This document shows positions 3,424 to 45,279 of a DNA stretch of 64,000 bases, one piece after another. The notes under the pieces were generated by a model. The model had not been told where the DNA came from and did not search any database. It saw only the letters and a program-made list of their open reading frames with translations. The DNA comes from Mycobacterium sp. Lineage in GTDB: Bacteria > Actinomycetota > Actinomycetes > Mycobacteriales > Mycobacteriaceae. Within the stretch, counting starts at the first letter, position 1, and every line of letters starts with the position of its first letter. The stretch is from NCBI GenBank assembly GCA_020438865.1, contig JAGQTU010000009.1, positions 1-64,000 on the forward strand. The letters are read 5' to 3'. The position numbers and the translations under genes are program-made.

Positions 3424-3442
3424 TACAGTAAGCAATTCAGTA
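3424..3442. promoter_or_regulatory. regulon dyad site 1
   Basis: TACAGTAA-GCA-ATTCAGTA, matching TACTGTAA-N3-TTACAGTA at 13 of 16 arm positions. It lies between the divergent LLM oxidoreductase (start 3411) and carboxylase (start 3471) genes. Confidence 0.6.
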
Positions 3443-3470
3443 TGGTCAACGCCGCCGTGAGGACGTACCG

Positions 3471-4967
3471 ATGAGCAACGCGCAGGACTGGCAGGAGACG
3501 CTGCACGACCTGAGTCGCCGGCGGCAGCACGCGCACGAGATGGGTGGCGACGAGCGACTGGCCAAGCATCACGCGAAGGGAAAGCTGGACGCCCGCGCCC
3601 GCATCGACCATCTGCTCGACCCGGGGACCTTCCAGGAGTTCGGCACCCTGGTCGGTGGTGAGATCGCCGCCGACGGCATCGTCACCGGCGCCGGACGTAT
3701 CGACGGGACGCCGGTGATGGTGGGCGCCGAGGACTTCACCACCCTCGCCGGTTCGATCGGCCCGGGCGGCAACGCCAAACGCTTCCGCCTCGCGGAACTG
3801 GCTCTGCGCCAGAAGATTCCGCTGATCATGCTGCTCGAAGGCGCTGGCTTTCGGCCCCGCGGCGAGCACTACGGCCGCAGCCCCACCGACCTGATCGCCC
3901 AGGCGCAGTGTTCCGGCAAGGTGCCCACCATCTCGGCGGTGCTGGGTCCCTCGGCCGGTCACGGGGCGCTGGTCGCCCCGGTGTGCGACTTCACCATCAT
4001 GAGCGCTCAGGGCGCGATCTTCACCGCCGGTCCCCCGGTGGTCAAAGAGTCCACCGGAGAGGAGATCTCGAAAGAGGATCTCGGTGGACCCGATATCGCA
4101 CTGCGCAGCGGTGTGATCCACAACTTCGCCGAGACCGACGAGGCGGCGCTCGACGAGATCCGGCGCTACCTGTCCTACTTCCCCTCCAGCGCATGGTCTT
4201 ACCCGCCGACGCGGCTCCACGACGCGTCCGGCGAGCTGCGACCCACCCCGCAACTGCTCGACATCATCTCCCGGGAGAACCGGCGGGTCTATGACATGCG
4301 CGCGGTCCTCGACGTGGTCTTCGACGACGCCGACTGGATGGAGGTCCAGCCGCGGTTCGGGCCGGCGATCATCTGTGCGCTGGCACATCTCGGCGGCTAC
4401 CCGGTCGCGGTGGTCGCCAATCAGCCGACCAAGCTGGCCGGGTCGATCGACGCCGACGCCGCCGACAAGGCCGCGCATTTCATCATGGTCGCCGACTCCT
4501 TCCACCTACCCATCGTGTTCCTGGCCGACAACCCCGGCATGCTGCCCGGCGGCCGCTCCGAACGCAGTGGCGTACTGCGCAGTGGCGCAAGGATGTTCGC
4601 CGCCCAGACCGCGGCCACCACGCTGAAGCTCCACCTGACCCTGCGCAAGGCGTTCGGGTTCGGGTCGATGGTGATGTCGCTGCTGGGATTCGACAACCAG
4701 GTGGCGACGTTCGCCTATCCGGGCGCGACGATGGGCGCGATGAGCGCGGCCGCGCTGAGCAAGGCCACCGACGCCGACGAGAACGTCACCGAGTTACTGA
4801 AGCAGATGGAGCTCGACGCGTCGTTCCGCTCGGCGAGCACCCTGGGCTTCGACGAACTGATCTCGCCCGAGGAGACCCGCAACGCCCTGCTGCTCGCCCT
4901 TCAGCGCGGCGTCCACGCCCGGCAGGAGGCCGCACAGCCGGTGGCGCGCACCGTGATCACACCGTAG
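3471..4967 (+). CDS. acyl-CoA carboxylase beta (carboxyltransferase) subunit
   Basis: 498 residues with both halves of the biotin-dependent carboxyltransferase fold. The N half contains LEGAGFRPRGEHYGRSPTD and the acyl-CoA-site stretch VLGPSAGHGALVAPVCDF; the C half contains VVANQPTKLAGSIDADAADKAAHF and FLADNPGMLPG. It transfers carboxyl from carboxybiotin to an acyl-CoA, as in propionyl-, methylcrotonyl- or geranyl-CoA carboxylases. No biotin-carboxylase/BCCP alpha subunit is in the window, so it must borrow one. GAGGA upstream supports ATG 3471. Its end overlaps the convergent LLM gene by 11 bases. Confidence 0.9.
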   Translation: MSNAQDWQETLHDLSRRRQHAHEMGGDERLAKHHAKGKLDARARIDHLLDPGTFQEFGTLVGGEIAADGIVTGAGRIDGTPVMVGAEDFTTLAGSIGPGGNAKRFRLAELALRQKIPLIMLLEGAGFRPRGEHYGRSPTDLIAQAQCSGKVPTISAVLGPSAGHGALVAPVCDFTIMSAQGAIFTAGPPVVKESTGEEISKEDLGGPDIALRSGVIHNFAETDEAALDEIRRYLSYFPSSAWSYPPTRLHDASGELRPTPQLLDIISRENRRVYDMRAVLDVVFDDADWMEVQPRFGPAIICALAHLGGYPVAVVANQPTKLAGSIDADAADKAAHFIMVADSFHLPIVFLADNPGMLPGGRSERSGVLRSGARMFAAQTAATTLKLHLTLRKAFGFGSMVMSLLGFDNQVATFAYPGATMGAMSAAALSKATDADENVTELLKQMELDASFRSASTLGFDELISPEETRNALLLALQRGVHARQEAAQPVARTVITP

Positions 4968-6000
4968 CGCGGTAGGCGGCGACGATCGGCTCGAGTTCGT
5001 CGGGCGAGGCGCCGTGCATGATCAGGGCATCAGCGCCGTAGTCGAACTCCTTGCGGATCCTCTCGACGCACTGCTGCGCCGACCCGGTCGCGGAGGGCTC
5101 CAGCCATTCGTCGGGGATGAGCGTGGCGATGTGCTCGATCTGCTCGGCGGTGGCCTTGTGGTCGATGCCGCCACCGATCGACTGCACGACGGAGTCGGCC
5201 CGGAACCGTTCCAGCACAGCGGGATCCCAGTCGTTGGTCTTCACCATCAGATCGCCGTAGCCCTGCAGGTAGGTGGCCAGCCGGGCCACGGTCTTCTTCA
5301 GCCGCAACTCCTCGGGTAGATGGTCGCCGACGGTGGCGAAGCACGACCACACCCGCACACTGTCGGGGTCACGGCCGGCCTGCTCGGCGGCATCCTTGAC
5401 CGTCTTCACGCACCGCTGCAGGGTCTCCGGGGTGAAGTAGGTGTGCAGGATGACATCGTCGAACACCCGCCCGCCGAGCTTGAGGGTGTTCGGCCCGAAC
5501 GCCACCAGGGCCAGCCGGATGTCCTCGCGGAAGTCCGGATCGAGGAACAGGATCTGGTACTTCCCGATCGGGCCGTCGTGGTTGAAGATCATCTCGCCTC
5601 GCCACAGCCGGCGCATCACGTGCGCGAAGTCCTCCATCTGTGCGGTGGTCACCGCGGGGATGCCGAACGCCGAGTAGATGGCGCCGATTCCGCGGCCGAT
5701 CCCCAACGTGAACCGGCCACCGGAGAGCCGGTGCATCGTGGTGGCCCACGATCCGGTGATCAGCGGATGACGGGTGTTGTGATTGGTTGCGGCCGTGGCG
5801 ATCTGCATCCGGCTGGTGACGGCGCAGGCGGCGCCGGTCAGTGACGACGCCTCCTTGACGTTCCAGCGCTCGGAGATGAACCCGGTGCCGAAGCCGAGTT
5901 CCTCGCCGCGGCGGGCCTCGTCCATCAGCGTCGCGGGGCCCTCCCCGCCGGCGCCGGCCAGCAGGTAGTAGCCGAGCTCGTCCAGCACGCGTTCAGTCAC
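4957..6000 (-). CDS. LLM-class F420-dependent oxidoreductase
   Basis: 347 residues of a luciferase-like TIM barrel, resembling the TIGR03857 group. Landmarks: 'RRGEELGFGTGFISERWNVKEA', 'ATAATNHNTRHPLITGSWATTMHRLSGGR' and 'FTLGIGRGIGAIY'. The GTG start at 6000 is chosen because it overlaps the TGA of the preceding gene (GTGA), the pattern of translational coupling. It is the last gene of the six-gene minus-strand operon that begins at 10596. Substrate unknown. Confidence 0.88.
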   Translation of the reverse strand: MTERVLDELGYYLLAGAGGEGPATLMDEARRGEELGFGTGFISERWNVKEASSLTGAACAVTSRMQIATAATNHNTRHPLITGSWATTMHRLSGGRFTLGIGRGIGAIYSAFGIPAVTTAQMEDFAHVMRRLWRGEMIFNHDGPIGKYQILFLDPDFREDIRLALVAFGPNTLKLGGRVFDDVILHTYFTPETLQRCVKTVKDAAEQAGRDPDSVRVWSCFATVGDHLPEELRLKKTVARLATYLQGYGDLMVKTNDWDPAVLERFRADSVVQSIGGGIDHKATAEQIEHIATLIPDEWLEPSATGSAQQCVERIRKEFDYGADALIMHGASPDELEPIVAAYRATV

Positions 6001-8533: not shown

Positions 8534-10150
8534 TCACCTCAGCACGAATCCGGCGTAGCCGTCGGCCGCCACCTCGTCGCACCGGCGGCGGTACTCCGGA
8601 ATACCGGCGGTATAGCCCATATACATCCGCTTCTTGCCTGGAACGTTGGCGCCGTTGTACCAGGAGTTGCAGGTCGGGTGAACCAGAACCGTCGGTGCCA
8701 CGAGCGACGTCGTGTGCTCGATCCACTCCCGCTGCGCGTCCGGCAGCGCCTCGATGGTGCGGTAGCCACCGTCGCGCAGATAGGTGATGCAGTCCCCGAT
8801 CCACTCCACATGCTGCTCCATCGCGGCGACGAAGTTCGTTGCCGCCGAGGGGCTGCCCGGCGCCTGGACGATGAACAGGTTCGGGAAGCCCGCCACCGCC
8901 AGCCCCAGATAGGCCACCGGCCCCTCGTCAGCCCACACGTCGCGCAGCAGTGCGCCGCCGCGACCGTGGATGTCGATGCGGGTGAGCGCACCGGTCATCG
9001 CGTCGAAACCGGTGGCATAGATGATCACGTCGAGGTCGTGATGGCCGTGCTCGGTGTCGATACCGTTGGGTGTCACCGACTTCAGCGGATCCGCGCGCAG
9101 GTCGACCAGCGTGACGTTGTCCCGGTTGAACGTCTCGTAGTAGCCCTGGTCGATGATCGGACGCTTGCAGCCGAACGGGTGGCTGGGCACCAGGGCCGCG
9201 GCGGTCTGCGGGTCGGAGACGATCCGCGCGATCGCCTCGCCGTAGAGGTCGGTGGCCATCCGGTTGGCCTCGATGTCGAAGAAGATGTCGCCCCAACTCA
9301 GCGCTCCGACGATGCCGCCTTCCTCGACCGCCCGCCGCCGCTCCTCGGGGCTGGCTGACGTGATCGGCGGGCAGCTCAGCATGTCGATCAGCACCGAGAA
9401 CGCCGAAAGCCGCGCGGCCCCCACCGGATGCTCCCGCTGCGCCGCCCGGATCTCGCCGTAACGCGCCTTCATCTCGTCGAGCTCGCCGTCGTCCAGCGCC
9501 CGCACCGGCCAGGGCAGGGTGTAGGCCGGCGAGCGCTGGAACACCACGAGTTCCGCGACGTCGGGGGCGATCACCGGGATCAGCTGCACGCCGGTGGATC
9601 CGGTGCCGATGACCCCGACGCGCTTGTCCGTGAGGTCGACGTCGTCGCGCGGCCATCTGCTGGTGAACAGTGACATCCCGGTGAAGCTGTCCATGCCGGG
9701 GATGTCCGGCTCCAGAGGCACCGATAGGATGCCGGCGGCGGCGACCACGAACGGGGCGAGGTAGCGCTGCCCGGCCGCAGTGTCCAGCACCCATTCGGCG
9801 GCGGTCTCGTCGAACGTCATCGCCACCACGTCGGCCCCGAAGCTGATGTCACGGCGCAGGTCGAGCTTGTCGGCCACGTAGTTCAGGTAGGCCTCGATCT
9901 CGGGCTGGGCCGGCATGGTCTCGGTCCACACCCACTCCTGCTGGATCTCCTCGGAGAAGCTGTAGGAGTACTCGATGCTCTCGATGTCACAGCGCGCACC
10001 CGGGTAGCGGTTGAACAGCCATGTGCCACCGACGTTTTCGGCTTTCTCCAGGACCCGGGCACGCAGGCCGAGCTCACGCAGCCGGTGCAGCATGTACAGG
10101 CCGGAGAAGCCCGCCCCGACCACGATCGCGTCGAAACGTTCCCCGGTCAC
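8534..10150 (-). CDS. flavin-containing (Baeyer-Villiger-like) monooxygenase
   Basis: 538 residues. An FAD-binding Rossmann motif (IVVGAGFSGLYMLHRL) is at the N-terminus and an NADPH-binding motif (VGVIGTGSTGVQLIP) around residue 180. The Baeyer-Villiger fingerprint FxGxxxHxxxWP is present as FTGMSLFTSRWP, with Phe162 where histidine is usual. The enzyme should oxygenate a ketone or similar substrate using NADPH and O2, but the altered fingerprint makes the reaction type uncertain. GTG 10150 overlaps the TGA of the SnoaL-like gene, fixing the start. Second gene of the operon. Confidence 0.88.
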   Translation of the reverse strand: MTGERFDAIVVGAGFSGLYMLHRLRELGLRARVLEKAENVGGTWLFNRYPGARCDIESIEYSYSFSEEIQQEWVWTETMPAQPEIEAYLNYVADKLDLRRDISFGADVVAMTFDETAAEWVLDTAAGQRYLAPFVVAAAGILSVPLEPDIPGMDSFTGMSLFTSRWPRDDVDLTDKRVGVIGTGSTGVQLIPVIAPDVAELVVFQRSPAYTLPWPVRALDDGELDEMKARYGEIRAAQREHPVGAARLSAFSVLIDMLSCPPITSASPEERRRAVEEGGIVGALSWGDIFFDIEANRMATDLYGEAIARIVSDPQTAAALVPSHPFGCKRPIIDQGYYETFNRDNVTLVDLRADPLKSVTPNGIDTEHGHHDLDVIIYATGFDAMTGALTRIDIHGRGGALLRDVWADEGPVAYLGLAVAGFPNLFIVQAPGSPSAATNFVAAMEQHVEWIGDCITYLRDGGYRTIEALPDAQREWIEHTTSLVAPTVLVHPTCNSWYNGANVPGKKRMYMGYTAGIPEYRRRCDEVAADGYAGFVLR

Positions 10151-10596
10151 TCGGCGGCGCCCGAGAACCGCAGCAGGGTTCTGGTCAGATGCAGGGTCTT
10201 GATCCGCCACTGCCCGTCGTGCTTCTCGTAGGTCTCGTGGTAGTGGCCGGCGCCGTGCAGCCGGTTGCCATCCGGGAAGAACAGCATGTCCTCCATCGCC
10301 CAGATCCCGGTCGCGGTGGTGGGCGAGGTCAGCGTGATCTCAGGGGTGTGACAGTGATGCACCGTCGCAACATCCTCCAGGGTGCCGAGCACCATCGGCA
10401 CGAAGTTGTCGACGCCCTCGATCGGCGGGCCGGTCTGCGGGTCCGCGCCGCCGGTGCATACCGCGCCGTCGAGCAGAACGGTCAGGTCGGGCGCGAAGAG
10501 CCCCCGCCAGCCGTCGGCGTCGCGGGTGTCGAGGTAGCGGCAGTAACGCGCCTTCAGCTGCCGGATGGCCTCGAGCTCGTCCGCCGTCGATGTCAC
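10147..10596 (-). CDS. SnoaL-like nuclear transport factor 2 family protein
   Basis: 149 residues. The family opening ADELEAIRQLKARYCRYLDTRDADGWRGLFAPDLTV is typical of SnoaL_4-type NTF2-like proteins, and the rest carries PMVLGTLEDVATVHHCHTPEITL and HYHETYEKHDGQWRIKTLHLTRT. Start set at GTG 10596 from the family N-terminus. It is the first gene of the minus-strand operon and is divergent from the isochorismatase-fold gene with a regulon dyad between them. Function unknown; possibly hydration, dehydration or isomerisation. Confidence 0.85.
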   Translation of the reverse strand: MTSTADELEAIRQLKARYCRYLDTRDADGWRGLFAPDLTVLLDGAVCTGGADPQTGPPIEGVDNFVPMVLGTLEDVATVHHCHTPEITLTSPTTATGIWAMEDMLFFPDGNRLHGAGHYHETYEKHDGQWRIKTLHLTRTLLRFSGAAE

Positions 10597-10629: not shown

Positions 10630-10648
10630 TACCGTAATACTCTTAGTA
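10630..10648. promoter_or_regulatory. regulon dyad site 2
   Basis: TACCGTAA-TAC-TCTTAGTA; 12 of 16 arm positions match the consensus. Lies between the divergent SnoaL-like operon and the isochorismatase-fold gene, close to both starts. Confidence 0.5.
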
Positions 10649-10661: not shown

Positions 10662-11276
10662 GTGAAGATTCCGCTCGCTGCACTGGCCGCACCCGGGCAC
10701 ACCGCGGTCGTCACCCAGGAATGCCAAGGCGCGGTGGTCGGGCCGGACGCCGGGCTGCGACTGCTGGCCGACGAGGCACGTCGGGAGGCGATCCCCAACA
10801 TCGCCAGGCTTCTGCCGGCGGCCCGCACCGCAGGCGTCCACGTCGTGCACTGCCTGGTGCAGCGGCGTCCCGACGGGCTGGGTTCCAACCACAACGCCAA
10901 GATCTTCCGGATCGGCAGCGACGACGTGGCGATCGCGCCGGGCGGTCCGGGCGCCGAGCTGCTGCCCGAACTCGGGCCGGAGCCAACCGATCTGGTGCTG
11001 CGGCGCTGGCACGGCATCGGCCCGATGGGCGGCACCGACCTCGACGCCGTCCTGCGCAACCTCGGCGTGTCCACCATCGTCGCCGTCGGGGTGTCGGTGA
11101 ACGTGGCGATCACCAACCTGGTGATGGACGCCGTCAACGCCGGCTACAACGTCGTCCTCCCACGCGACGCCGTCGCCGGGATTCCCGCCGACTACGCCGA
11201 CGCCGTCATCGACAACACCCTGTCGCTGCTGGCCACCCTCACCACCACAGATGACCTGATCGAGGCATGGCAGTAG
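10662..11276 (+). CDS. isochorismatase-fold protein lacking the catalytic Cys
   Basis: 204 residues of the cysteine-hydrolase/isochorismatase fold. Fold markers include AGVHVVHCLVQ, LRRWHGIGPMGGTDLDAVLRNLGVSTIVAVGV and the helix after VNVAITNLVMDAVNAGY. The family nucleophile position is Ala149 (GVSVNVAI) and the N-terminal Asp motif reads VVTQECQ, so the canonical Asp-Lys-Cys triad is incomplete. It is unlikely to be a normal amidase. GTG 10662 has a perfect AGGAGG five bases upstream. Next gene is the P450, about 80 bases on. Confidence 0.85.
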   Translation: MKIPLAALAAPGHTAVVTQECQGAVVGPDAGLRLLADEARREAIPNIARLLPAARTAGVHVVHCLVQRRPDGLGSNHNAKIFRIGSDDVAIAPGGPGAELLPELGPEPTDLVLRRWHGIGPMGGTDLDAVLRNLGVSTIVAVGVSVNVAITNLVMDAVNAGYNVVLPRDAVAGIPADYADAVIDNTLSLLATLTTTDDLIEAWQ

Positions 11277-11300: not shown

Positions 11301-11319
11301 TACTGTAATCTTTACAGTA
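11301..11319. promoter_or_regulatory. regulon dyad site 3 (perfect)
   Basis: TACTGTAATCTTTACAGTA, two perfect 8-bp arms and a 3-base centre. It lies between a possible -35 (TTGTCT, 11296-11301) and -10 (TACATA, 11318-11323) of the P450 gene, where a bound repressor would block polymerase. Confidence 0.8.
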
Positions 11320-11355: not shown

Positions 11356-12564
11356 GTGGAGAGTCCGGTCCGGGACACCCCGGTCGACGAGCCGTTCGAC
11401 CTGCTGCGCAACCCCTATCCGCTGTTCGCCGAGAAGCGCCGCGAGTCGCCGGGGATCTTCCAGGGCTCGGTGATGGACTGGTCCAAGGCGGCCGACATGC
11501 GGCCCAAGGACATGTACGCGGCGGTGTCCTTCGATGCCGTCAACCGGGTTTTCCGGGACAGCCAGGCCTTCAACTCGCGGATCTACGACTCCACGATCGG
11601 GCTGTTCATCGGTCCCACGCTGCTGGCGATGGAAGGCAAGAAGCACTGGCAGCACCGCAATCTGGTCTCGGCGGCCTTCAAGTCCAAGTCGTTGCAGCGC
11701 TGGGAACCGCAGATCGTGCGTCCGGTCGTCAACGCACTGATCGACGAGTTCATCGACGACGGGCGGGCCGACCTGGTCAAGCAGTTCACCTTCGAGTTCC
11801 CCACCCGCGTCATCACCAAGCTGCTCGGCCTGCCCGAGGAGGACCTGCCGTGGTTCCGTCAGCGTGCCATCGAGCTGATCAGCTACCACATCCGCTACCA
11901 GCGCGCGTTCGAGGCGTCGGCGGCGCTGAAAGACTATTTCCTGCAACAGATCGAGCTGCGCCGGTCGGCCCCCACCGAGGACATCATCGGTGATCTGGTG
12001 ACCGCCGAGATCGACGGCGAGAAGCTGACCGACGAGGCGATCTACTCCTTCCTGCGGCTGCTGCTGCCCGCCGGTCTGGAGACCACCTACCGGTCGTCGG
12101 GCAACCTGATCTACCTGTTGCTCACCCACCCCGAGCAATTCCGGGCGGTCCAGGCCAACCGCGAACTGGTGGCGCCGGCCATCGAGGAGGGCCTGCGCTA
12201 CGAGACCCCGCTGACGACGGTGCAGCGTTCGGCCAACATCGACACCGAGGTCGAGGGGGTGGCGATCCCGAAGGGTGCGGTGATCGACGTCTGCATCGGC
12301 TCGGCCAACCGCGACGAGAAGCGCTGGGAGCGGTCCGAAGACTTCGACATCTTCCGGAAACGCCTGCCGCACATCTCGTTTGCCGCCGGCGAGCACACCT
12401 GCATGGGCCTGCACCTGGCCCGCATGGAGACCCGGGTGGCGTTCGAGACGCTGCTCGACCGCGTCACCGACATCGAGCTGCTCACCGACGACAACCCGCA
12501 TATCTGGGGGCAGCCGTTCCGCTCGCCGACCGCGATCCCGGTGACGTTCAACACCGTCGGCTAA
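11356..12564 (+). CDS. cytochrome P450
   Basis: 402 residues, normal for a bacterial P450. The heme loop is FAAGEHTCMG with Cys349 as iron ligand; the K-helix ExxR is in EEGLRYETPL; the oxygen-activation helix is LLLPAGLETTYR, with Glu where Asp is common. It should hydroxylate a hydrophobic substrate using an external ferredoxin, which is not encoded nearby. GTG 11356 is chosen with GGAGG upstream; an ATG at 11296 lies upstream of the operator and the proposed -10. It converges with and overlaps the aldehyde dehydrogenase end by 4 bases. Confidence 0.93.
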   Translation: MESPVRDTPVDEPFDLLRNPYPLFAEKRRESPGIFQGSVMDWSKAADMRPKDMYAAVSFDAVNRVFRDSQAFNSRIYDSTIGLFIGPTLLAMEGKKHWQHRNLVSAAFKSKSLQRWEPQIVRPVVNALIDEFIDDGRADLVKQFTFEFPTRVITKLLGLPEEDLPWFRQRAIELISYHIRYQRAFEASAALKDYFLQQIELRRSAPTEDIIGDLVTAEIDGEKLTDEAIYSFLRLLLPAGLETTYRSSGNLIYLLLTHPEQFRAVQANRELVAPAIEEGLRYETPLTTVQRSANIDTEVEGVAIPKGAVIDVCIGSANRDEKRWERSEDFDIFRKRLPHISFAAGEHTCMGLHLARMETRVAFETLLDRVTDIELLTDDNPHIWGQPFRSPTAIPVTFNTVG

Positions 12565-14096: not shown

Positions 14097-14115
14097 AACT
14101 GTAATTGTTACAGTA
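14097..14115. promoter_or_regulatory. regulon dyad site 4
   Basis: AACTGTAATTGTTACAGTA, one base away from a perfect dyad with the same 8-3-8 layout as site 3. Placed between the divergent aldehyde dehydrogenase and CoA-transferase genes. Confidence 0.78.
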
Positions 14116-17702: not shown

Positions 17703-17714
17703 ACCCGTTGTCTC

Positions 17715-27860: not shown

Positions 27861-27863
27861 CGG

Positions 27864-28514: not shown

Positions 28515-28537
28515 GCGTCCCCTCACCGGGCTATCCT

Positions 28538-35954: not shown

Positions 35955-36635
35955 CTATCGCCTGACCTGTTGGGCGACACCCTGTTTCACGAGGTGGTCG
36001 ATCAACGGCGTCGCCCCGGCTGCCAGGTGCTCGGACATCGCCGCCCGGGCGGCGTCCGCGTCGTGGGCCCGCAAGGCGGCGAGGATGCGCCCGTGGTCGG
36101 CCACCGACTGTGCCGGCCAGCCCTCGATCGTCGGGAACACCGACTCCGGTGCGTACCGGGTGATCTGGGACATCAGCTGAGCCAGCTTCGCCGAGTCCGC
36201 GGCCACATTGATGGCGCGGTGGAACTCGTGGTTGAGCCGCACCGCCCGGTCGCCGTCGTCGGCGGCGTACGCCTCGGTGAGCTCGTCGTGGATCGCCGAA
36301 AGATCCTGCAGCTGTTCGTCGGTGATGCTGGCCGCGGCCCGGGCGGCCAGTTCGCCGCCGACGTGTGCCTGCAGGTTGGAGACGTCGGTGATGTCGCGGT
36401 CGGTGAACGGCAGCACGACGAAGCCGCGCCGCGGCAGCTGGTCGAGCAGCCCTTCGCCGCGCAGTTCGAACAGCGCTTCGCGCACGGGCGTCACGCTGAT
36501 CCCGAGCTCGGCCGCCAGCTGGTCGAGCCTGATGTACTCCCCGGCGGGATAGGTGCCGTTGAAGATGCGGCGACGCACGAAGCGTGCGACGTCCTCGGCC
36601 AGCTGCGGTCTGGGCGCGAAATCCGGTGCGCTCAT
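35955..36635 (-). CDS. GntR-family regulator (FCD type)
   Basis: 226 residues. Winged helix-turn-helix at residues about 12-77 (AEDVARFVRRRIFNGTYPAGEYIRLDQLAAELGISVTPVREALFELRGEGLL) and an FCD domain with His residues in LNHEFHRAIN and ADHGRILAALRAHD. It is the last gene of the operon SDR-thiolase-acyl-CoA dehydrogenase-GntR and probably controls it through the 33-bp dyad at 39815-39847. Confidence 0.9.
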   Translation of the reverse strand: MSAPDFAPRPQLAEDVARFVRRRIFNGTYPAGEYIRLDQLAAELGISVTPVREALFELRGEGLLDQLPRRGFVVLPFTDRDITDVSNLQAHVGGELAARAAASITDEQLQDLSAIHDELTEAYAADDGDRAVRLNHEFHRAINVAADSAKLAQLMSQITRYAPESVFPTIEGWPAQSVADHGRILAALRAHDADAARAAMSEHLAAGATPLIDHLVKQGVAQQVRR

Positions 36636-36636
36636 G

Positions 36637-37830
36637 TCAGATCCGGTAGTCGGCGAGAAGCCGCTTGCTGATGATGTTCTTCTGAATCTCGCTGGTGCCT
36701 TCCCCGATGAGCAGGAACGGGGCGTCGCGCATCAGCCGTTCGATCTCGTACTCCTTGGAGTAGCCGTATCCACCGTGGATGCGGAAGCTCTGCTGGGTGA
36801 CCTCCGAGCAGAACTCGCTGGCCAGGTATTTGGCCATGCCCGCGGCGACGTCGTTGCGCTCACCGGAGTCCTTCAGCCGGGCTGCGTTGACCATCATCAG
36901 ATGTGCCGCTTCGACTTTGGTGGCCATCTCGGCGAGCTGGAAGGCAATGGCCTGGTGTTCGGCGATCGGCTTGCCGAAGGTGCTGCGCTGCTGGGCGTAG
37001 CGGACCGCCAGCTCGAACGCCCGGATACCGACGCCGCAGGCGCGGGCGGCGACGTTGACGCGGCCGACCTCCACGCCGTCCATCATCTGGAAGAAGCCCT
37101 GGCCCGGCTTGGCGCCGAGGATGTCGTCGGCGCCGGCGACGTAGCCGTCGAAGATCAGCTCGGTGGTGTCGATGCCCTTGTAGCCGAGTTTGTCGATCTT
37201 GCCGGGGATGGTCAGGCCGGGCGCGACTTCGCCGAAGCCGGTGGGCTTTTCGACGAGGAAGGCGGTCAGGTTGCGGTGCGGCTTGTCCGCGCCCTCGTCG
37301 GTGCGCACCAGCGCGGCCACCAGGGTGGAGCTGCCGCCGTTGGTCAGCCACATCTTCTGGCCGTCGATGGTGTAGGTGCCGTCGCCGTTGTCGCGGGCCC
37401 GGGTGCGGATCGCGGCGACGTCCGAGCCGAGTTCGGGCTCCGACATGGAGAACGCGCCGCGGGTCTCCCCGGTCGCCATCCGCGGCAGGAAGCGCTGCTT
37501 CTGGTCGTCGGTGCCGTGCTGGCGGATCATGTAGGCGACGATGAAGTGGGTGTTGATCACCCCGGACACGCTCATCCACCCGCGAGCCAGTTCCTCGACA
37601 CACAGCGCGTAGGTCAGCAGCGACTCACCGAGCCCGCCGTACTCCTCGGGCACCATCAGGCCGAACAGTCCCATCTCGCGCATCTGGTCGACGATGGCCT
37701 GCGGATAGGTGTCGGAGTGCTCGAGCTCCTGGGCGTTGGGGATGATCTCCTTGTCGACGAATTGCCGCACGGTGGAGATGATTTCGGTCTGGAACTCCGT
37801 CAGTCCGAGCGTCTGCGCGAGTCTGGTCAT
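36637..37830 (-). CDS. acyl-CoA dehydrogenase
   Basis: 397 residues with full family motifs: AFSMSEPELGSDVAAIRTRA, KMWLTNGGSS, RIHGGYGYSKEYEIERLMRDA and LIGEGTSEIQKN, where the Glu is the likely catalytic base. It introduces a 2,3-double bond into an acyl-CoA with FAD. ATG 37830 overlaps the thiolase stop (ATGA), and its stop lies next to the GntR start. Confidence 0.95.
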   Translation of the reverse strand: MTRLAQTLGLTEFQTEIISTVRQFVDKEIIPNAQELEHSDTYPQAIVDQMREMGLFGLMVPEEYGGLGESLLTYALCVEELARGWMSVSGVINTHFIVAYMIRQHGTDDQKQRFLPRMATGETRGAFSMSEPELGSDVAAIRTRARDNGDGTYTIDGQKMWLTNGGSSTLVAALVRTDEGADKPHRNLTAFLVEKPTGFGEVAPGLTIPGKIDKLGYKGIDTTELIFDGYVAGADDILGAKPGQGFFQMMDGVEVGRVNVAARACGVGIRAFELAVRYAQQRSTFGKPIAEHQAIAFQLAEMATKVEAAHLMMVNAARLKDSGERNDVAAGMAKYLASEFCSEVTQQSFRIHGGYGYSKEYEIERLMRDAPFLLIGEGTSEIQKNIISKRLLADYRI

Positions 37831-39041
37831 AGTGTCACCCTTTCGAACACGGCGGCCAGGCCCTGCCCGCCGCCGATGCACATGGTCTCCAGCCCGTAGC
37901 GGGCGTCGCGGCGGTGCAGTTCGCGCGCCAGCGTGGCCAGCATCCGTCCCCCGGTGGCACCCACCGGGTGACCCAGGGAGATACCGGAGCCGTGCACGTT
38001 GGTGCGCGCCAGGTCGGCCTCGGTGAAGTTCCACTCCCGCATGACGGCCAGGGCCTGCGCGGCGAACGCCTCGTTGAGTTCGATGAGGTCGATGTCTGTC
38101 AAACTCAGCCCCGCCTTGCGCAACGCGGCCTCGGTGGCCGGGACCGGGCCGATGCCCATCACCTCCGGGCCCACCCCGGCCGAACCCCAGGACACCAACC
38201 GCACGAGTGGCGTCAGGCCGAGTTCGGCGGCCCTTTCCGGCGTCGTCACCAGGCACATCGAGGCGGCGTCGTTCTGGCCCGAGGAGTTTCCGGCCGTCAC
38301 GGTGGCCTCCGGATCCTGCTTGAGGAGAACCGGTTTCAGCTTGGCCAGTGACTCGGTGGAGGTGTCGGCGCGGGGGTGCTCGTCGGTGTCGATCACCTGC
38401 TCGCCCTGGCGAGTGGACACGGTGACGGGAATGATCTCCTCGGCCAGGATTCCGCGTTGCTGGGCCGAGACGGCCCGCTGGTGGGAGGCGACGGCCAGTT
38501 CGTCCTGTTCGTGCCGCGAGATGCCGTACTCGCGGCGCAGGTTCTCGGCGGTCTCCAGCATTCCGCCGGGCACGGGATGGAACTTTCCGCCCGCGGTGGT
38601 GCGGCCGCGAGCCAGCCCGTCGTGCACCCGCACTCCGTGCCGGGCCGCACCCCAGCGCATATCGGTGGAGTAGAACGCGACGTTGCTCATGCTCTCCGCA
38701 CCGCCGGCGACCACGAGATCGTTGTCGCCCGAGGCTACTTGGAGGCAGGCCTGGATGACGGCCTGCAGTCCCGACCCGCAGCGCCGGTCGACCTGCATAC
38801 CGGGCACGGTCACCGGCAGGCCGGCGTCGAGGGCCACGACCCGCCCGATCGCCGGCGCCTCACTGTTGGGGTAGCAGTGTCCGAGGATGACATCGTCGAC
38901 CGCCTCCGCGGCCACCCCGGTGCGCTCGAGCAGTCCCGTCAGCGCGGCGACGCCGAGGTCGACGGCCGTCAGTGAACCGAACATCCCGCCGTAGCGGCCG
39001 ATCGGCGTGCGGACCGGCTCACAGATGACGGCGGTTCGCAT
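37827..39041 (-). CDS. acetyl-CoA acetyltransferase (thiolase)
   Basis: 404 residues. Reactive Cys in QVDRRCGSGLQA, His in SLGHPVGATGGRM and second Cys in ETMCIGGGQG; all catalytic residues are present. Degradative thiolase of the FadA type. Its ATG shares a base with the SDR stop at 39041, so SDR, thiolase and dehydrogenase are a coupled beta-oxidation set. Confidence 0.95.
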   Translation of the reverse strand: MRTAVICEPVRTPIGRYGGMFGSLTAVDLGVAALTGLLERTGVAAEAVDDVILGHCYPNSEAPAIGRVVALDAGLPVTVPGMQVDRRCGSGLQAVIQACLQVASGDNDLVVAGGAESMSNVAFYSTDMRWGAARHGVRVHDGLARGRTTAGGKFHPVPGGMLETAENLRREYGISRHEQDELAVASHQRAVSAQQRGILAEEIIPVTVSTRQGEQVIDTDEHPRADTSTESLAKLKPVLLKQDPEATVTAGNSSGQNDAASMCLVTTPERAAELGLTPLVRLVSWGSAGVGPEVMGIGPVPATEAALRKAGLSLTDIDLIELNEAFAAQALAVMREWNFTEADLARTNVHGSGISLGHPVGATGGRMLATLARELHRRDARYGLETMCIGGGQGLAAVFERVTL

Positions 39042-39790
39042 CAGAGGTGCCGCCCGCCGGTGACCTCCAGCACCGTGCCGGTCATGTACGACGAGAGGTC
39101 CGAGGCCAGGAACAATGCCACGTTGGCGACCTCGTAGGGCTCACCGGCGCGACCCAGCGGAACCTCGGCGACCTTCGAGTCCCAGATGCGTTGCGGCATG
39201 GCCTCGGTCATCGCCGACCGGATCAGGCCGGGCTGGATGGCGTTCACGCGCACCCCGAGGTGGGCGAGTTCCTTGGAGGCGGCCTTGGTCATGCCGACGA
39301 TGCCGGCCTTGGCCGCCGAGTAGTTGGTCTGGCCGATCATGCCGACCTTGCCGGAGATCGACGACATGTTCACGATCGCGCCGCTCTTCTGCTCACGCAT
39401 GATCGATGCGGCCTTCTTCAATCCGTTCCAGGTGCCCTTCAGGTGTACCGAGATGACCTGATCGAACTCGTCCTCGGTCATCTTGCGCAGGGTTGCGTCC
39501 CGGGTGATGCCGGCGTTGTTGACCATGATGTCGAAACGGCCGAACTCCCCGACCGCGGCGTCCACCAGCGCATCGACGTCCGCGTAGGAGGTGACGTCGC
39601 ACGTCACCGCCCGCGCGACGTCCGTGCCGCCGAGTTTCTCGACGGCCTCCCTGGTGGCCTCGAGGTTGAGGTCACCGAGGACCACCCGGGCGCCCTCGGC
39701 GACGAACCGCTCCGCGATCGCGAAACCCAGTCCTTGCGCGCCCCCGGTGATCACCGCCACCCGGCCGTCCAACAACGCCATCTGTTCCAC
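39041..39790 (-). CDS. FabG-like short-chain dehydrogenase
   Basis: 249 residues. Cofactor loop [12 protein letters not shown] motif, catalytic Ser in NMSSISG and Tyr-Lys in NYSAAKAG. It resembles FabG-like 3-ketoacyl/3-hydroxyacyl-CoA reductases or dehydrogenases. First gene of its operon and divergent from the acyl-CoA dehydrogenase at 39873. Confidence 0.93.
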
Positions 39791-39814
39791 CTCTCAGCTC
39801 GTACCCGCCACGTC

Positions 39815-39847
39815 GGAGGCGATCATATTTCATATATGATCGCCTCC
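39815..39847. promoter_or_regulatory. 33-bp dyad between divergent operons
   Basis: Arms GGAGGCGATCATAT (39815-39828) and ATATGATCGCCTCC (39834-39847) pair at all 14 positions around the five bases TTCAT. AT-rich core in GC-rich DNA. Probably the operator of the FCD-type GntR protein encoded at 35955-36635. Confidence 0.75.
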
Positions 39848-39872
39848 ATCCGTCGCCCCGGAGAGGACCCCG

Positions 39873-41047
<1,175 letters not shown>

Positions 41048-41051
<4 letters not shown>

Positions 41052-41869
41052 GCGGCCGGCTCACAGGCAAGGTCGCGTTCATCACCGGGGCCGCGCGCGG
41101 CCAGGGCCGGGCGCACGCCGTCAAGATGGCGGCCGAGGGCGCCGACATCATCGCCGTGGACATCGCGGGCAAGCTACCGGACTGCGTGCCCTATGACCCG
41201 GCCACTCCCGAGGATCTGGCCGAAACCGTCGCGCTGGTCGAGACAACCGGGCGCCGCATCGTTCCGGCCGTCGTCGACATCCGCGACCTCGACGGCCTGA
41301 AAGCGGCTGTCGTGCAGGGTGTTACGCAGCTGGGCCGGTTGGACGTCATCGTCGCCAACGCCGGGATCTCGCCGCCCGCGGCATGGGACGCCATCACACC
41401 GGAGGCGTTCCGGGACGTGCTGGACATCAACGTCACCGGGACCTGGAACACGGTGATGGCCGGCGCACCGACGATCATCGAGGGTGGCCGCGGCGGTTCG
41501 ATCATCCTGATCAGCTCGGCGGCCGGTATCAAGATGCAGCCGTTCATGGTGCACTACACCACGAGCAAGCACGCCGTCACCGGGATGGCGCGGGCGTTCG
41601 CGGCCGAGCTGGGCAAGCACGACATCCGGGTCAATAGTGTGCATCCGGGACCGGTCAACACCGCTATGGGAACCGGTGACATGGTGGCCGAGCTGAACAA
41701 GGCGATGGAAAGCAACCCGCAGCTGCATCACATGCTGACCCCGTTCCTGCCGACCTGGGTCGCCGAGCCGGAGGACATCGCCGACACCGTGTGCTGGCTG
41801 GCCAGCGACGAGGCGAAGTTGATTACCGCTGAGGCGATTTCCGTCGATCAGGGCTCGACGAAGTACTGA
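41048..41869 (+). CDS. mycofactocin-type short-chain dehydrogenase
   Basis: 273 residues of an SDR subfamily (TIGR03971-like) that carries a non-exchangeable NAD and passes electrons to mycofactocin. Features: VAFITGAARGQGRAHAVKMAAEGADIIAVDI with the longer insert after it (PYDPATPEDLAETV), and Tyr-Lys in HYTTSKHA. It oxidises an alcohol. GTG 41048 overlaps the upstream stop (GTGA). Its last 47 bases are antisense to the end of the hydrolase gene. Confidence 0.9.
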
Positions 41870-42755
41870 GCACGCGGCCCAGGAACGCGACCTGGTGGTC
41901 GGCGGCCTTGTCGAACCATCCGTTGCCCGGCCAGACGTCGAAATGATCACACGGATAGTGGTGTACCACGCCCCGGGCCAGCACCGCGGTCTTGGCCACC
42001 GAGTCGGCGGGCACGTAACGGTCGAAGTCGGCGATTTGGAACAGCGCCGGGCAGCGCACTCGCCTGGCGGCGTCGGCGGTTCGGATGCCGGCGATCTGCA
42101 GGCCCACCGCTGAGTCGACCTCGTTGCGCCAGGTCGGGCCGGCCAGTGCGGTGTAGCTCTCGTAGGCGCCGTCCAGGGTCAGCCCACCGGGCTCGCCGGG
42201 ATGGGCGACCAGTGGCATCATCGTGGGACGCCCACCGCGGGCGACGTCGACGCGGCTCTTCAGCCCGATCGCCGTCCACTTCAACGCCGTCCCGACGTCG
42301 CGGTGGGCGACGGCGGCGCGGCTCACGGCCGCACCACTGGTGAGCGGTGTCATCGCGATGACGGCGGCGATGTCGTCGCGACCCGAGGCCACCCGCAGCA
42401 CGTGCCCACCCGACATCGATGAACCCCACAGCACGATCCGGTTCGGGTCGACACCGGGCAGTTGTTTGGCGGCGGCGACCGCGGATTCGAAGTCGTGGAT
42501 CTGCCCGACCACCGAAACCGTCTGCCGCGGTTCGCCTTCCGAGGCACCGAAGCCGCGGTAGTCGAAGGCCAGCACGTCAAGGCCTGCTTGGCTGAGTCGC
42601 TGCGCGAACGGTTCGAGACCGGAGTCCTTGGTGCCCCCGAAGCCGTGGCCCATCACCACGACGGGCCGCTGCTCATAGCCGTCGCCCTCGCCGGGGAAGT
42701 GCCAGCCGCTGCAGGTTACTCCTGCCGAATCGAAGGCGATGTCGTAGCGCGTCAT
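41823..42755 (-). CDS. alpha/beta hydrolase
   Basis: 310 residues. Oxyanion loop VVMGHGFGGTKDSGLEPFAQ, nucleophile elbow WGSSMSGGH (Ser), acid region FQIADFDRYVP and late His in YPCDHFDVWPG. Similar proteins are acetylxylan-esterase-like or dienelactone-type hydrolases; the substrate is unknown. Its ATG overlaps the monooxygenase stop (ATGA). The last 15 residues overlap the SDR gene on the other strand. Confidence 0.88.
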   Translation of the reverse strand: MTRYDIAFDSAGVTCSGWHFPGEGDGYEQRPVVVMGHGFGGTKDSGLEPFAQRLSQAGLDVLAFDYRGFGASEGEPRQTVSVVGQIHDFESAVAAAKQLPGVDPNRIVLWGSSMSGGHVLRVASGRDDIAAVIAMTPLTSGAAVSRAAVAHRDVGTALKWTAIGLKSRVDVARGGRPTMMPLVAHPGEPGGLTLDGAYESYTALAGPTWRNEVDSAVGLQIAGIRTADAARRVRCPALFQIADFDRYVPADSVAKTAVLARGVVHHYPCDHFDVWPGNGWFDKAADHQVAFLGRVLSTSSSPDRRKSPQR

Positions 42756-44101
42756 ACGGTTTCCTCAACGCGGCGGCGGCGCAACTCGGCCCGCTTGACA
42801 CCGGCCGGGAGCTCCCGGGTCCGGATGTCGTGCTCGTAGTGGAAGTAGTCGACCTGTTGGGTGTGCCGCGGCCGGTCCACACAGTGCCCGACGTACTTCT
42901 GTTGGTCGGCGTCGATGACCCGTTCCATCTCGGCGACCGGTGGCAGGGCATAGCGGCCGATCGCGTAGGCGGCCATCAGCTTGGCCTGACACTCGATGAA
43001 GGGGAACAGAGTCGGGATGGCCTGGGCGAAGCCGATGAACACCAGATTGTCGATGCCGGGGGAGAACATCCGCTTGTAGAGCCGGATGTCGTTGCCGGGG
43101 GCGCTGACGAAATCGGGGTCGAAGAACGGGAAGGTGATGTTGTAGCCGGTGGCGTAGACGATGGCGTCGAACTCGGCGCTGGTGCCGTCCTCGAAATGAA
43201 CGGTGTTGCCGTCCAGTCGGGCGACGTTGGGCTTGGGGATGACGTCGCCGGAGCCCAGGCGCAGCGGCAGCTCCACCGACTGCGTCGGATGTGCCTCGAA
43301 CAGCTTGTGATTGGGTTCCGGCAACCCGTAGAGAGTGGGATCGACTCCCATGTACGGGGCCATCAGCTGAATGGCCTTGCGCTGCCAGGACAGCGGGAGG
43401 TACGGCGATGTCTTCCACACGGTGTCGCCGGGCCGGCCGGCGATGTACTTGGGCACGATCCAGGCGCTCGACCGGGTCGACAGGGTGACGGTGTTCTGCA
43501 GGGTCTTGGAGGACAGTTCGACGGTGATGTCGGCTGCACTGTTGCCGATGCCGACGACCAGGATGCGTTTGCCGGTCAGGTCCAGCGGGGTCTGCGGGTC
43601 GATGTAGTGGTGTGAGTGGATGGTCTCGCCGGTGAATTCGCCCGGAAAATCCGGATACCGGGCATCCCAGTGGTGCCCGTTGCCGACGACGAGCAGGTCG
43701 AACTCGCGGGTCTCACCGCGCTGGTCGGTGATCTCCCAGCCGCCGTCGGGACGCCGCGCGGCATGCTGCACGCCGTTGTTGAACTCGATGTCGTCCAGCA
43801 GGCCGAAGGCGTCGGCGTAGGAGTCGAGGTAGGCCTTGATCTCGCTGTGGTGCGGGAACGACGGAAAGTGCTCCGGGATCGGAAAGTCCTTGAACGACAA
43901 CCGTTCTTTCGAGGTGTCGATGTGCAGTGAGCGGTACGCGCTGGACAGGCCGTTCGGGTTGCCGAACGCCCAGTTGCCGCCGATGCGGTCGGAGAGCTCG
44001 AACGTGGTGTACCCGACGCCGTAGTCCTTGAGCATCTTGCCGGACGTCAGCCCGCTGATTCCGGCGCCGATGATCGCTGTGCGGGGCGGGTTCTCGGCCA
44101 T
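42752..44101 (-). CDS. flavin-containing monooxygenase (FMO type)
   Basis: 449 residues. FAD motif IIGAGISGLTSGKML, FMO fingerprint FxGxxxHxxxY intact as FTGETIHSHHY, and NADPH motif VVGIGNSAADI. It differs from the 8534-10150 enzyme, which has an altered Baeyer-Villiger fingerprint. It oxygenates a soft nucleophile or ketone with NADPH and O2. Middle gene of a three-gene operon with a kinase upstream and a hydrolase downstream, the same trio of families as in the 6.4-10.2 kb operon. Confidence 0.92.
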   Translation of the reverse strand: MAENPPRTAIIGAGISGLTSGKMLKDYGVGYTTFELSDRIGGNWAFGNPNGLSSAYRSLHIDTSKERLSFKDFPIPEHFPSFPHHSEIKAYLDSYADAFGLLDDIEFNNGVQHAARRPDGGWEITDQRGETREFDLLVVGNGHHWDARYPDFPGEFTGETIHSHHYIDPQTPLDLTGKRILVVGIGNSAADITVELSSKTLQNTVTLSTRSSAWIVPKYIAGRPGDTVWKTSPYLPLSWQRKAIQLMAPYMGVDPTLYGLPEPNHKLFEAHPTQSVELPLRLGSGDVIPKPNVARLDGNTVHFEDGTSAEFDAIVYATGYNITFPFFDPDFVSAPGNDIRLYKRMFSPGIDNLVFIGFAQAIPTLFPFIECQAKLMAAYAIGRYALPPVAEMERVIDADQQKYVGHCVDRPRHTQQVDYFHYEHDIRTRELPAGVKRAELRRRRVEETV

Positions 44102-44110
44102 GGGATGCCC

Positions 44111-45187
44111 CTATTCGGATGCGACGAGGTCGAGGGTGCCCAGGTCGCGGATCGCCCGACAGCCCCGGCGCAGCATCGCGGCCATCATGTCGTCGCCGCG
44201 TTCGGTTTCCACGGAGAACGCGCATCCGAGCGCGGAGATCAGCGGGACCTGGATCATGCCGAGGCGGTAGTCGTGCCAGCAGGTGGACTGGTCGTAGCCG
44301 GTGACGCCCTGTTCGCACAGTGCCCGGTGGTAGTCGCTGACGAGTTCTGGTTCCACCTCGGCGCGCAGTTCGGGTTCCAGACTGGTGCCGGTGAAATAGG
44401 CGAGGTCGCGGCCGGCCAGCCCGACGCCGAGGGTCTGCCAGTCGACGACGGTGACCCGGTCACCATCGAACAGCAGGTTGTCCAGGCGATAGTCGCCGTG
44501 CAGCAGGGCATACCGGTCAGGTGCCTGGAGCAGCCAGGGCGTCACCAAACCCATTGATGCGACGAGGGTTTCGGCATCGACGTCGGTCAACTTGCCCTCG
44601 AGCTTCTCCACGGTGATATCGGCCGCCATCTTGGCGACCTCGCCCATACCGCGGACGGCGTCCTCGCCGGTGACGCTCATCGCCAGGCCCTCGAAGGTCT
44701 GCCAGTGTGGATCACACCAGGTGGGTCCGTGCAGTCCGGCGAGTGCACGCACCGCCAGGCGGGCCTCGTCGAGGCCGCAGCCGGCGATCTGGTCGCCCTG
44801 CACCGCGGGGGCCTGATCGGCCAGTAGCAGCGCGTAGCTGGCGCCCTCGTCGGTGATCTCGCAGCTGAAGCACTCCGGGATAGGGATGGTCACCCGGTCG
44901 GCGACCGAGGAGTAGAAGGCGCACTCGCTGCGATAGCCCAGCGACACCCGGTCACGAACGGCGTCGTCACCGGACGGCAGCTTGAGGATGAAGCTGTCCG
45001 GCAGTCCGTGCGGATTGCTTGCGTAGCCGGCTGTCACCCGGAAGGTGGCTCCGGTCTGCCCGGTGCCCACGGGGCGGACGTCGATGGCGACGACATCGGC
45101 CGCCGTCCCCCGGCGGCCGAGGACATCGGCGAGCCACGCGGCGGTGACATCGGAGGGATACCGGGGTATGGCGGACACGGCGCTCAT
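44111..45187 (-). CDS. APH-fold phosphotransferase
   Basis: 358 residues. Catalytic loop LLHGDYRLDNLLFDG, metal motif VVDWQT and Lys in SFILKLPSG identify an aminoglycoside-phosphotransferase-like kinase of the ecdysteroid-kinase-like branch. First gene of the operon; a degenerate regulon dyad lies 74-92 bases upstream. Substrate unknown. Confidence 0.88.
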   Translation of the reverse strand: MSAVSAIPRYPSDVTAAWLADVLGRRGTAADVVAIDVRPVGTGQTGATFRVTAGYASNPHGLPDSFILKLPSGDDAVRDRVSLGYRSECAFYSSVADRVTIPIPECFSCEITDEGASYALLLADQAPAVQGDQIAGCGLDEARLAVRALAGLHGPTWCDPHWQTFEGLAMSVTGEDAVRGMGEVAKMAADITVEKLEGKLTDVDAETLVASMGLVTPWLLQAPDRYALLHGDYRLDNLLFDGDRVTVVDWQTLGVGLAGRDLAYFTGTSLEPELRAEVEPELVSDYHRALCEQGVTGYDQSTCWHDYRLGMIQVPLISALGCAFSVETERGDDMMAAMLRRGCRAIRDLGTLDLVASE

Positions 45188-45260
45188 CGTGTCACCGACC
45201 TTGCCTCGACGGAATGTTGGTCACCGGCGAACGCCACCGTAGCCTCCTTAGCGAAAATTC

Positions 45261-45279
45261 AACTGTAAGGCATACGGCA
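45261..45279. promoter_or_regulatory. regulon dyad site 9 (degenerate)
   Basis: AACTGTAA-GGC-ATACGGCA; left arm 7 of 8, right arm 5 of 8. Upstream of the kinase-monooxygenase-hydrolase operon, which would tie that operon to the island to the left. Confidence 0.4.

What the first reader, a model, noticed from the sequence alone, without database searches (positions are those of the whole stretch)
3424..45279. A shared 19-bp dyad ties the catabolic island into one candidate regulon
Sites 11301-11319 and 14097-14115 have the same 8-3-8 layout, TACTGTAA-N3-TTACAGTA (perfect and one base off). Weaker matches with the same spacing sit at 3424, 10630, 23301, 24202, 26203, 28561 and 45261, nearly always between divergent genes or just upstream of an operon. 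The TetR gene at 24235 has one in its own promoter. This motif is unlike the KstR (TnnAACnnGTTnnA) and KstR2 (AnCAAGnnCTTGnT) sites I know. A single repressor controlling about 25 catabolic genes over more than 40 kb is the simplest reading.
Basis: partly seen in the sequence, partly recalled or inferred. Interest (0 to 1): 0.78.

Follow-up and report, generated by a model that had tools for sequence, protein, structure and literature searches.

The report
TetR operator regulon in Mycobacterium island
A 19-letter mirror-image DNA switch, conserved across the genus Mycobacterium and probably bound by a TetR-type repressor encoded beside it, appears to control much of a large, uncharacterised degradation gene cluster, which also seems to carry two other local switches.

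Summary
In the 4.96 Mb genome the dyad TACTGTAA-N3-TTACAGTA (up to 3 mismatches) occurs four times, all in this window. A matrix built only from other species' sites recovers eight of the nine listed sites; 26203 fails. At five sites the letters stay 90-96% identical in relatives while flanks drop to 28-54%. Of 198 Mycobacterium genomes, 124 carry a near-perfect site and 123 of these carry the 24235 TetR. The site lies upstream of 78 of 79 tetR orthologs fetched without regard to the motif. Best reading: a TetR repressor with a multi-operon catabolic regulon that includes itself, like KstR but with a different operator.

"One repressor for the whole island" is too broad. Genes 35955-41051 have no site in any of the 14-15 relatives examined; a different conserved dyad (39822) lies there, beside a GntR-type gene. 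A third dyad (28541) tracks the other GntR gene. In several relatives the dyad also precedes a second P450, far from the island at six places. Binding, repression and ligand are untested. New member of a known kind.

The parts
3424..3442 (.). dyad site between lux1 (-) and accD (+); 12 bases from a possible lux1 ATG at 3411
   Evidence: score 19.2; site in 13 of 13 relatives for each gene; core identity 0.96 vs flank 0.54
10630..10648 (.). weaker dyad site upstream of the isochorismatase-like gene and 438 bp upstream of fmo1
   Evidence: score 18.0; 0 of 11 relatives at isoch; one near-identical counterpart in G018
11301..11319 (.). perfect dyad site upstream of P450
   Evidence: 0 mismatches; 10 of 11 relatives; core 0.94 vs flank 0.28
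14097..14115 (.). dyad site between aldehyde dehydrogenase (-) and CaiB-type CoA transferase (+)
   Evidence: 1 mismatch; aldh 10 of 10, caiB 8 of 11 relatives; core 0.95 vs flank 0.34
23301..23319 (.). dyad site upstream of the ech1 operon (-)
   Evidence: score 11.1; 15 of 16 relatives; core 0.90 vs flank 0.44
24202..24220 (.). dyad site between sdr1 (-) and tetR (+), the repressor's own promoter
   Evidence: score 26.9; tetR 16 of 17, sdr1 7 of 13 relatives; 78 of 79 named tetR loci
28561..28579 (.). dyad site upstream of hyp1-gntR1-ech2 (-); also just upstream of ech3 (+)
   Evidence: score 11.2; hyp1 5 of 5, gntR1 5 of 8, ech3 0 of 14 relatives; core 0.76 vs flank 0.44
45261..45279 (.). 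dyad site upstream of aph2-fmo2-hyd (-)
   Evidence: score 15.0; 2 of 6 relatives within 300 bp of aph2, 5 of 6 within 2.6 kb
26203..26221 (.). claimed site upstream of thl2; NOT supported
   Evidence: score 3.8; 2 of 10 relatives
24235..24936 (+). TetR-family regulator P0001, proposed repressor (start ATG 24235 or GTG 24253)
   Evidence: TetR_N and TetR_C_1; co-occurrence with the motif
2380..3411 (-). lux1, F420-dependent LLM-class oxidoreductase (TIGR03617)
3471..4967 (+). accD, carboxyltransferase
8534..10210 (-). fmo1, Baeyer-Villiger-type monooxygenase; target in some relatives, doubtful in the window
   Evidence: phenylacetone monooxygenase 539 bits; sites at or near its start in G004 and G027
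10662..11276 (+). isochorismatase-fold hydrolase
11356..12564 (+). cytochrome P450 (start GTG 11356 likely)
12561..14078 (-). aldehyde dehydrogenase
14154..15368 (+). CaiB-type CoA transferase (start approximate)
15355..16506 (+). thl1, SCP2/BbsB-like thiolase, no own site in the window
   Evidence: own site in 7 of 12 relatives
16503..23267 (-). putative operon ech1-amh2-fadD1-amh1-acad2-acad1 read from 23301
   Evidence: operon assumed from gene order
23346..24143 (-). sdr1, short-chain dehydrogenase
26230..28526 (-). ech2, gntR1 (GntR-FCD, 27093-27860) and hyp1
28541..28556 (.). second dyad TATCTTGTACAAGATA, candidate GntR1 operator, not part of the TetR regulon
   Evidence: only one in the genome at up to 2 mismatches; its core CTTGTACAAG is in 7 of 9 regions with gntR1 and 0 of 9 without
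28593..34625 (+). ech3-ech4-fadD2-fadD3-fadD4, possible targets of 28561, of 28541 or of both
35955..41051 (.). gntR2-acad3-thl3-sdr2 (-) and acad4 (+): outside the TetR regulon
   Evidence: no site upstream in any of the 14 or 15 relatives examined
39822..39840 (.). third dyad ATCATATTTCATATATGAT, candidate GntR2 operator
   Evidence: only one in the genome at up to 3 mismatches; at up to 3 mismatches in 12 of 15 relatives, not in G011, G027, G034
41823..45187 (-). hyd-fmo2-aph2, read from 45261

Best explanation
The dyad is the operator of the TetR-family protein encoded at 24235. A dimer binds TACTGTAA-N3-TTACAGTA close to the start codons of a series of catabolic transcription units and of its own gene, blocks transcription, and is released by an unknown ligand, most likely a substrate or acyl-CoA intermediate of the pathway. 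Shown by computation: the sites, their rarity elsewhere in the genome, their conservation and strict spacing, and the co-occurrence with tetR. Inferred: binding by this protein, repression, the ligand and the operon structure. In the window the conserved targets are lux1, accD, p450, aldh, caiB-thl1, the six-gene ech1 operon, sdr1, tetR and hyp1-gntR1-ech2 (17 genes, assuming operons). With the less conserved sites 10630 (isoch), 45261 (aph2-fmo2-hyd) and the ech3 side of 28561 (five genes) it is about 26. Genes 35955-41051 are under something else, probably GntR2, and GntR1 probably adds a local layer at 28541.
For: Own genome: 4 of 4 places at up to 3 mismatches lie in the window. A matrix from other species finds 8 of the 9 sites, null mean 0.067. 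Footprint: core 0.90-0.96 vs flank 0.28-0.54 at five sites. 123 of 124 motif-bearing genomes have this TetR; 1 of 47 TetR-less genomes has a motif; Fisher p 2.8e-24. Motif genomes lacking GntR1: 57 of 124; lacking GntR2: 2 of 124. Site upstream of 78 of 79 named tetR orthologs, found with a matrix that left out tetR-proximal sites; at 20 bits 73 of 79 against 0.08% of 3649 control windows. Of the 28 TetR genomes without a near-perfect site, 13 were examined: 12 have a weaker site at the tetR promoter, and the other, G026, keeps one at lux1/accD. The stretch VGVTSIYWYF, the recognition helix by analogy with TetR (recalled), is invariant in 16 aligned proteins, one of them a paralog. 0 of 24 genomes of other genera of the order carry the motif at up to 2 mismatches. 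A functionally fitting distal target, a second P450, at 6 places.
Against: No binding or expression data. tetR lies inside the island, so co-inheritance inflates the co-occurrence, and relatedness is not corrected for. G139 carries one 1-mismatch site without this TetR; at up to 3 mismatches it has 4 places against 5 for the control. 15 of the 28 TetR genomes without a near-perfect site were not examined. GntR2 is missing in only two motif genomes, so this test excludes it only weakly. 13 of the 17 relatives used for the footprint had been chosen because they carry the motif, which favours the counts. Two other off-island places fetched do not fit: G069 (in a reading frame) and G139 (no gene called near).
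Confidence: 0.82

Rival explanations
1. The dyad is bound by one of the two GntR-FCD proteins of the island (27093-27860 or 35955-36635), and tetR is only one of the targets.
For: Both genes lie in the island; GntR2 is present in 122 of 124 motif genomes.
Against: GntR1 is absent in 57 of 124 motif genomes. No dyad upstream of gntR2 in any of 15 relatives, and gntR2 is present in 50 genomes without a near-perfect motif. Each GntR gene has another palindrome close by that fits it better.
Confidence: 0.06
2. The dyad is shared by two TetR paralogs in some species: TetR and a TetR2 encoded after the P450 gene, about 56% identical, so the true network has two readers with different ligands.
For: TetR2 lies about 1.3 kb from a dyad in G034, G011, G020 and G021; its VGVTSIYWYF stretch is identical (G034 copy).
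Against: In the window p450 and aldh adjoin, so no such gene lies there, and the G011 copy holds stop codons: at most an addition in some species.
Confidence: 0.3
3. An unlinked regulator binds the dyad, and TetR follows only because it sits in the same island.
For: Co-occurrence alone cannot separate linked genes. Genomes that kept only part of the island still keep sites at lux1/accD and tetR, which would also fit an outside regulator.
Against: The repressor's own promoter is the most widely kept target (78 of 79), the usual pattern for a TetR regulator. No genome with two or more near-perfect sites lacks tetR among 198.
Confidence: 0.09
4. The sites are chance matches in AT-rich promoter DNA.
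For: Three of the nine have 4 mismatches and two have 5.
Confidence: 0.01

Closest known systems
KstR (Rv3574 / MSMEG_6042) regulon, PMC1995591 (passages seen)
   Same: Mycobacterial TetR repressor, palindromic operator in its own promoter and upstream of many, often divergent, lipid-degradation genes; motif found by aligning the regulator's own promoter
   Different: Operator TnnAACnnGTTnnA (14 bp), 0 matches in the window; KstR binding and de-repression were shown by experiment
KstR2 (Rv3557c) regulon, PMC3068626 (passages seen)
   Same: TetR repressor of a local catabolic cluster, sites in divergent promoters
   Different: Operator AnCAAGnnCTTGnT, 0 matches in the window; 15-gene regulon with three sites
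BkaR (MSMEG_4718), PMC3920632 (start of abstract in a search listing only)
   Same: Mycobacterial TetR repressor of nearby catabolic genes
   Different: Branched-chain keto-acid genes; motif not compared here
Tetracycline repressor TetR (e.g. PDB 5mru, 1qpi)
   Same: Best PDB sequence relatives are tetracycline repressors; TetR_N and TetR_C_1 domains
   Different: Far below the NCBIfam cut-off for the resistance repressor (81.7 of 265 bits); no tetracycline efflux gene among the window proteins scanned

Membership tests
TetR family regulator | N-terminal TetR_N helix-turn-helix domain | tested here: met
   45 bits, cut-off 24
TetR family regulator | helical ligand-binding C-terminal domain | tested here: met
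TetR family regulator | dimer binding a palindromic operator | not testable with these tools
   operator inferred from conservation and co-occurrence only
TetR family regulator | operator in its own promoter (common, not universal) | tested here: met
   24202; 16 of 17 relatives, 78 of 79 named loci
KstR regulon | operator TnnAACnnGTTnnA | tested here: not met
   0 matches in window
KstR2 regulon | operator AnCAAGnnCTTGnT | tested here: not met
   0 matches in window
tetracycline resistance repressor | NCBIfam equivalog cut-off of NF010319 | tested here: not met
   81.7 bits against 265
single-regulator island | all transcription units carry the same operator | tested here: not met
   gntR2, acad3, thl3, sdr2, acad4 have none upstream in any of the 14 or 15 relatives examined

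The most novel reading that the evidence does not exclude
This is a third large TetR-type catabolic regulon of mycobacteria, comparable in kind with KstR, whose regulator is present in about three quarters of sampled species (151 of 198). It reads a chemically distinct substrate through a P450, Baeyer-Villiger monooxygenase and CoA-ester route, reaches a second P450 elsewhere in the chromosome in some species, and is layered with two GntR-type repressors that have their own operators inside the same island.
Probability: 0.5. Interest if true: 0.65.

Novelty: new member of a known kind. Interest (0 to 1): 0.52.

Why it matters
It gives a precise, testable operator and a named candidate repressor for a large catabolic island whose function was not found described in the papers searched. 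De-repression of the island in a tetR deletion would expose the pathway and help to find its substrate, as the KstR work did for cholesterol genes. It also splits the island into three regulatory blocks, which predicts which enzymes act together.

Tried and rejected
Rejected: 26203 as a site. One regulon for the whole span. The three out-of-window matches as clear regulon members: C7:12228 scores 10.2 between an aldehyde dehydrogenase and a PucR-type gene, C109:19065 scores 4.1 between a Rieske-type oxygenase and a flavin oxidoreductase gene, and C110:34404 scores 0.6 and lies in a reading frame. Led nowhere: identifying the substrate; NCBIfam and PDB matches name enzyme classes only. Paper searches for the locus tags suggested by two NCBIfam names, MSMEG_2249 and MSMEG_2256, and neighbours gave 0 papers. 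The two half-site letter strings gave 888 papers, of which the 20 listed look unrelated by title. Four searches by topic and one by P450 and terpenoid words listed no paper that, by title and start of abstract, describes this regulon. PMC4482099 (passages) tabulates motifs for 30 mycobacterial TetR regulators, but the motif images are not in the held text, so overlap could not be checked. Whether M. tuberculosis has an ortholog was not examined. In one search the last two rows (L136, L137) were read on the wrong strand and are disregarded.
Full report
What was checked. The nine sites are present at the stated coordinates. Only four match TACTGTAA-N3-TTACAGTA with up to 3 mismatches: 3424, 11301, 14097 and 24202; 100 shuffles of the window gave none. 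In the whole 4.96 Mb assembly (90.9% complete) the same search finds four places, all in this window; the backwards control pattern gives two. A looser pattern covering seven of the sites finds ten distinct places, seven of them in the window, which is 1.3% of the genome; its control gives three. That pattern was drawn from the sites, so only the low number outside is informative.

Independent matrix. A matrix was built from 35 distinct sites of 17 relatives, none from the window. Simulated windows of the same size hold 0.067 such scores on average (60 windows, largest score 12.0). Site 26203 scores 3.8 and is not distinguishable from chance. The half-site spacing is fixed: ACTGTA and TACAGT face each other at five bases 27 times in the relatives and twice in the window, and never at any other spacing from 0 to 15.

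Conservation. The genus is Mycobacterium, from the names of tetR orthologs. The island is largely syntenic in 17 relatives, although some lack parts of it. These 17 are not a neutral sample: 13 had been seen to carry the motif and 4 had not. At a threshold of 8 bits, from 300 bp upstream to 20 bp downstream of the start, sites recur at the same promoters: lux1 13 of 13 relatives, accD 13 of 13, p450 10 of 11, aldh 10 of 10, caiB 8 of 11, ech1 15 of 16, tetR 16 of 17, hyp1 5 of 5, sdr1 7 of 13, thl1 7 of 12, gntR1 5 of 8, est 3 of 12. For aph2 it is 2 of 6, or 5 of 6 within 2.6 kb. Results against the finding: thl2 (26203) 2 of 10, isoch (10630) 0 of 11, ech3 0 of 14, fmo1 1 of 10, and none for gntR2 (15), acad3 (15), thl3 (14), sdr2 (15) or acad4 (15). 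At fmo1 the range was too narrow: in G004 and G027 a site lies at or just by its start, and in G020 and G028 by an extra gene before it. Around 3424, 11301, 14097, 23301 and 24202 the 16 half-site letters are 0.90-0.96 identical to the window across 10 to 17 relatives and the 50 flanking letters 0.28-0.54; at 28561 the figures are 0.76 and 0.44 in 5 relatives. Relatives were aligned on their best-scoring place, which favours the core figure; the recurrence of non-consensus letters, such as TACAGTAAGCAATTCAGTA at 3424, is not explained by that.

Which regulator. In 198 Mycobacterium genomes, 124 carry at least one site with up to 1 mismatch; the control pattern matches in 2. The 24235 TetR ortholog (E up to 1e-75) is in 151, GntR2 in 172, GntR1 in 71. 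Motif and TetR together: 123; motif without TetR: 1 (G139); TetR without motif: 28; neither: 46. GntR1 is missing from 57 of the 124 motif genomes and GntR2 from 2. G139 has a single 1-mismatch site with no called gene near it, and at up to 3 mismatches 4 places against 5 for the control. Of the 28 TetR genomes without a near-perfect site, 13 were looked at: 12 have a weaker site at the tetR promoter, and the thirteenth, G026, has one at lux1/accD; 15 were not looked at. Since tetR is part of the island, co-occurrence is partly plain co-inheritance. As a test not selected on the motif, 80 named loci were fetched by TetR similarity alone; one has no upstream DNA. With a matrix that left out tetR-proximal sites, 78 of 79 have a site of 12 bits or more within 300 bp upstream, against 1.45% of 3649 control windows; the exception is M. 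lepraemurium. At 20 bits it is 73 of 79 against 0.08%. Some of these loci are probably the same species as the training relatives. The stretch VGVTSIYWYF, taken as the recognition helix by analogy with TetR (recalled), is invariant in 16 aligned proteins, one of them a paralog.

Beyond the island. In relatives the dyad also occurs away from the island. Eight such places with up to 2 mismatches were fetched, out of a larger number listed. Six (G020 twice, G034, G021, G073, G209) lie just upstream of a second type of P450, 63-93% identical to each other among the five proteins compared, 71-73% for G209, and 28-29% to the island P450. Two do not fit: G069:186666 lies in a reading frame, and the G139 place has no called gene near it. 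Three off-island places with 3 mismatches (L205, L206, L209) show no such P450. In G132 and G071 the same P450 type with a dyad lies within about 20 kb of tetR. The place fetched in G106, before a CaiB gene, lies about 8 kb from tetR and next to gntR2 and acad3 orthologs. The own genome has a 69% identical P450 on contig C44 with an interrupted frame, and a poor remnant of the site (score -2.5) upstream.

Other switches in the same island. A palindrome TATCTTGTACAAGATA at 28541-28556 is the only one in the genome at up to 2 mismatches. Its core CTTGTACAAG is in 7 of 9 regions that have gntR1 (not G027, G034) and 0 of 9 that lack it. A dyad ATCATATTTCATATATGAT at 39822-39840, between sdr2 and acad4, is also the only one at up to 3 mismatches and is found at up to 3 mismatches in 12 of 15 relatives, not in G011, G027 and G034. 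These are the likely operators of GntR1 and GntR2 (inference). The second would explain why 35955-41051 lacks the TetR dyad.

What the genes do. The island holds a P450, a Baeyer-Villiger-type monooxygenase (539 bits to phenylacetone monooxygenase), an adjacent gene with a weak esterase match below Pfam's cut-off, aldehyde dehydrogenase, short-chain dehydrogenases, a CoA transferase, acyl-CoA ligases, acyl-CoA dehydrogenases, enoyl-CoA hydratases, thiolases and two F420-type oxidoreductases. Inference: oxidation of a hydrophobic, probably cyclic or terpenoid-like compound, ring opening or ester formation, CoA activation and beta-oxidation. The substrate is not identified.

Comparison. It works like KstR and KstR2 (PMC1995591, PMC3068626, passages seen): a TetR repressor with its operator in its own promoter and in divergent catabolic promoters. 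It is neither of them: neither operator occurs in the window. That the regulon is undescribed rests, in open-licence papers only; PMC4482099 (passages) could hold a related motif as an image.

Verdict. New member of a known kind.

Noticed in passing
window 28541-28556: Perfect palindrome TATCTTGTACAAGATA, unique in the genome at up to 2 mismatches; its core follows the presence of gntR1 in relatives (7 of 9 against 0 of 9): candidate GntR1 operator, 4 bp from the TetR-type site.
   Followed up: partly
window 39822-39840: Dyad ATCATATTTCATATATGAT between sdr2 and acad4, unique in the genome, kept at up to 3 mismatches in 12 of 15 relatives: candidate GntR2 operator.
   Followed up: partly
L219:2501-3325 (G034); also G011, G020, G021: A second TetR, 56% identical with the same VGVTSIYWYF stretch, lies after the island P450; the G011 copy holds stop codons.
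   Followed up: partly
window 24235-24936: The window's TetR lacks about 20 residues near its C-terminus that the three orthologs aligned have; its ligand response could differ.
   Followed up: no
G000 contig C44:1339-2382 (L224): Own copy of the distal P450 has an interrupted frame, and the upstream site is decayed.
   Followed up: partly
regions G006, G023, G031 upstream of est; G028 upstream of gntR1: Overlapping dyads in 12 bp steps that share a half-site, a possible cooperative arrangement.
   Followed up: no
upstream of thl2, window about 26170-26215: A different conserved stretch with TTTTGTAACG upstream of thl2 in several relatives.
   Followed up: no
G000 contig C7:12228 (L198): A 10.2-bit match between an aldehyde dehydrogenase and a PucR-type regulator gene.
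   Followed up: partly
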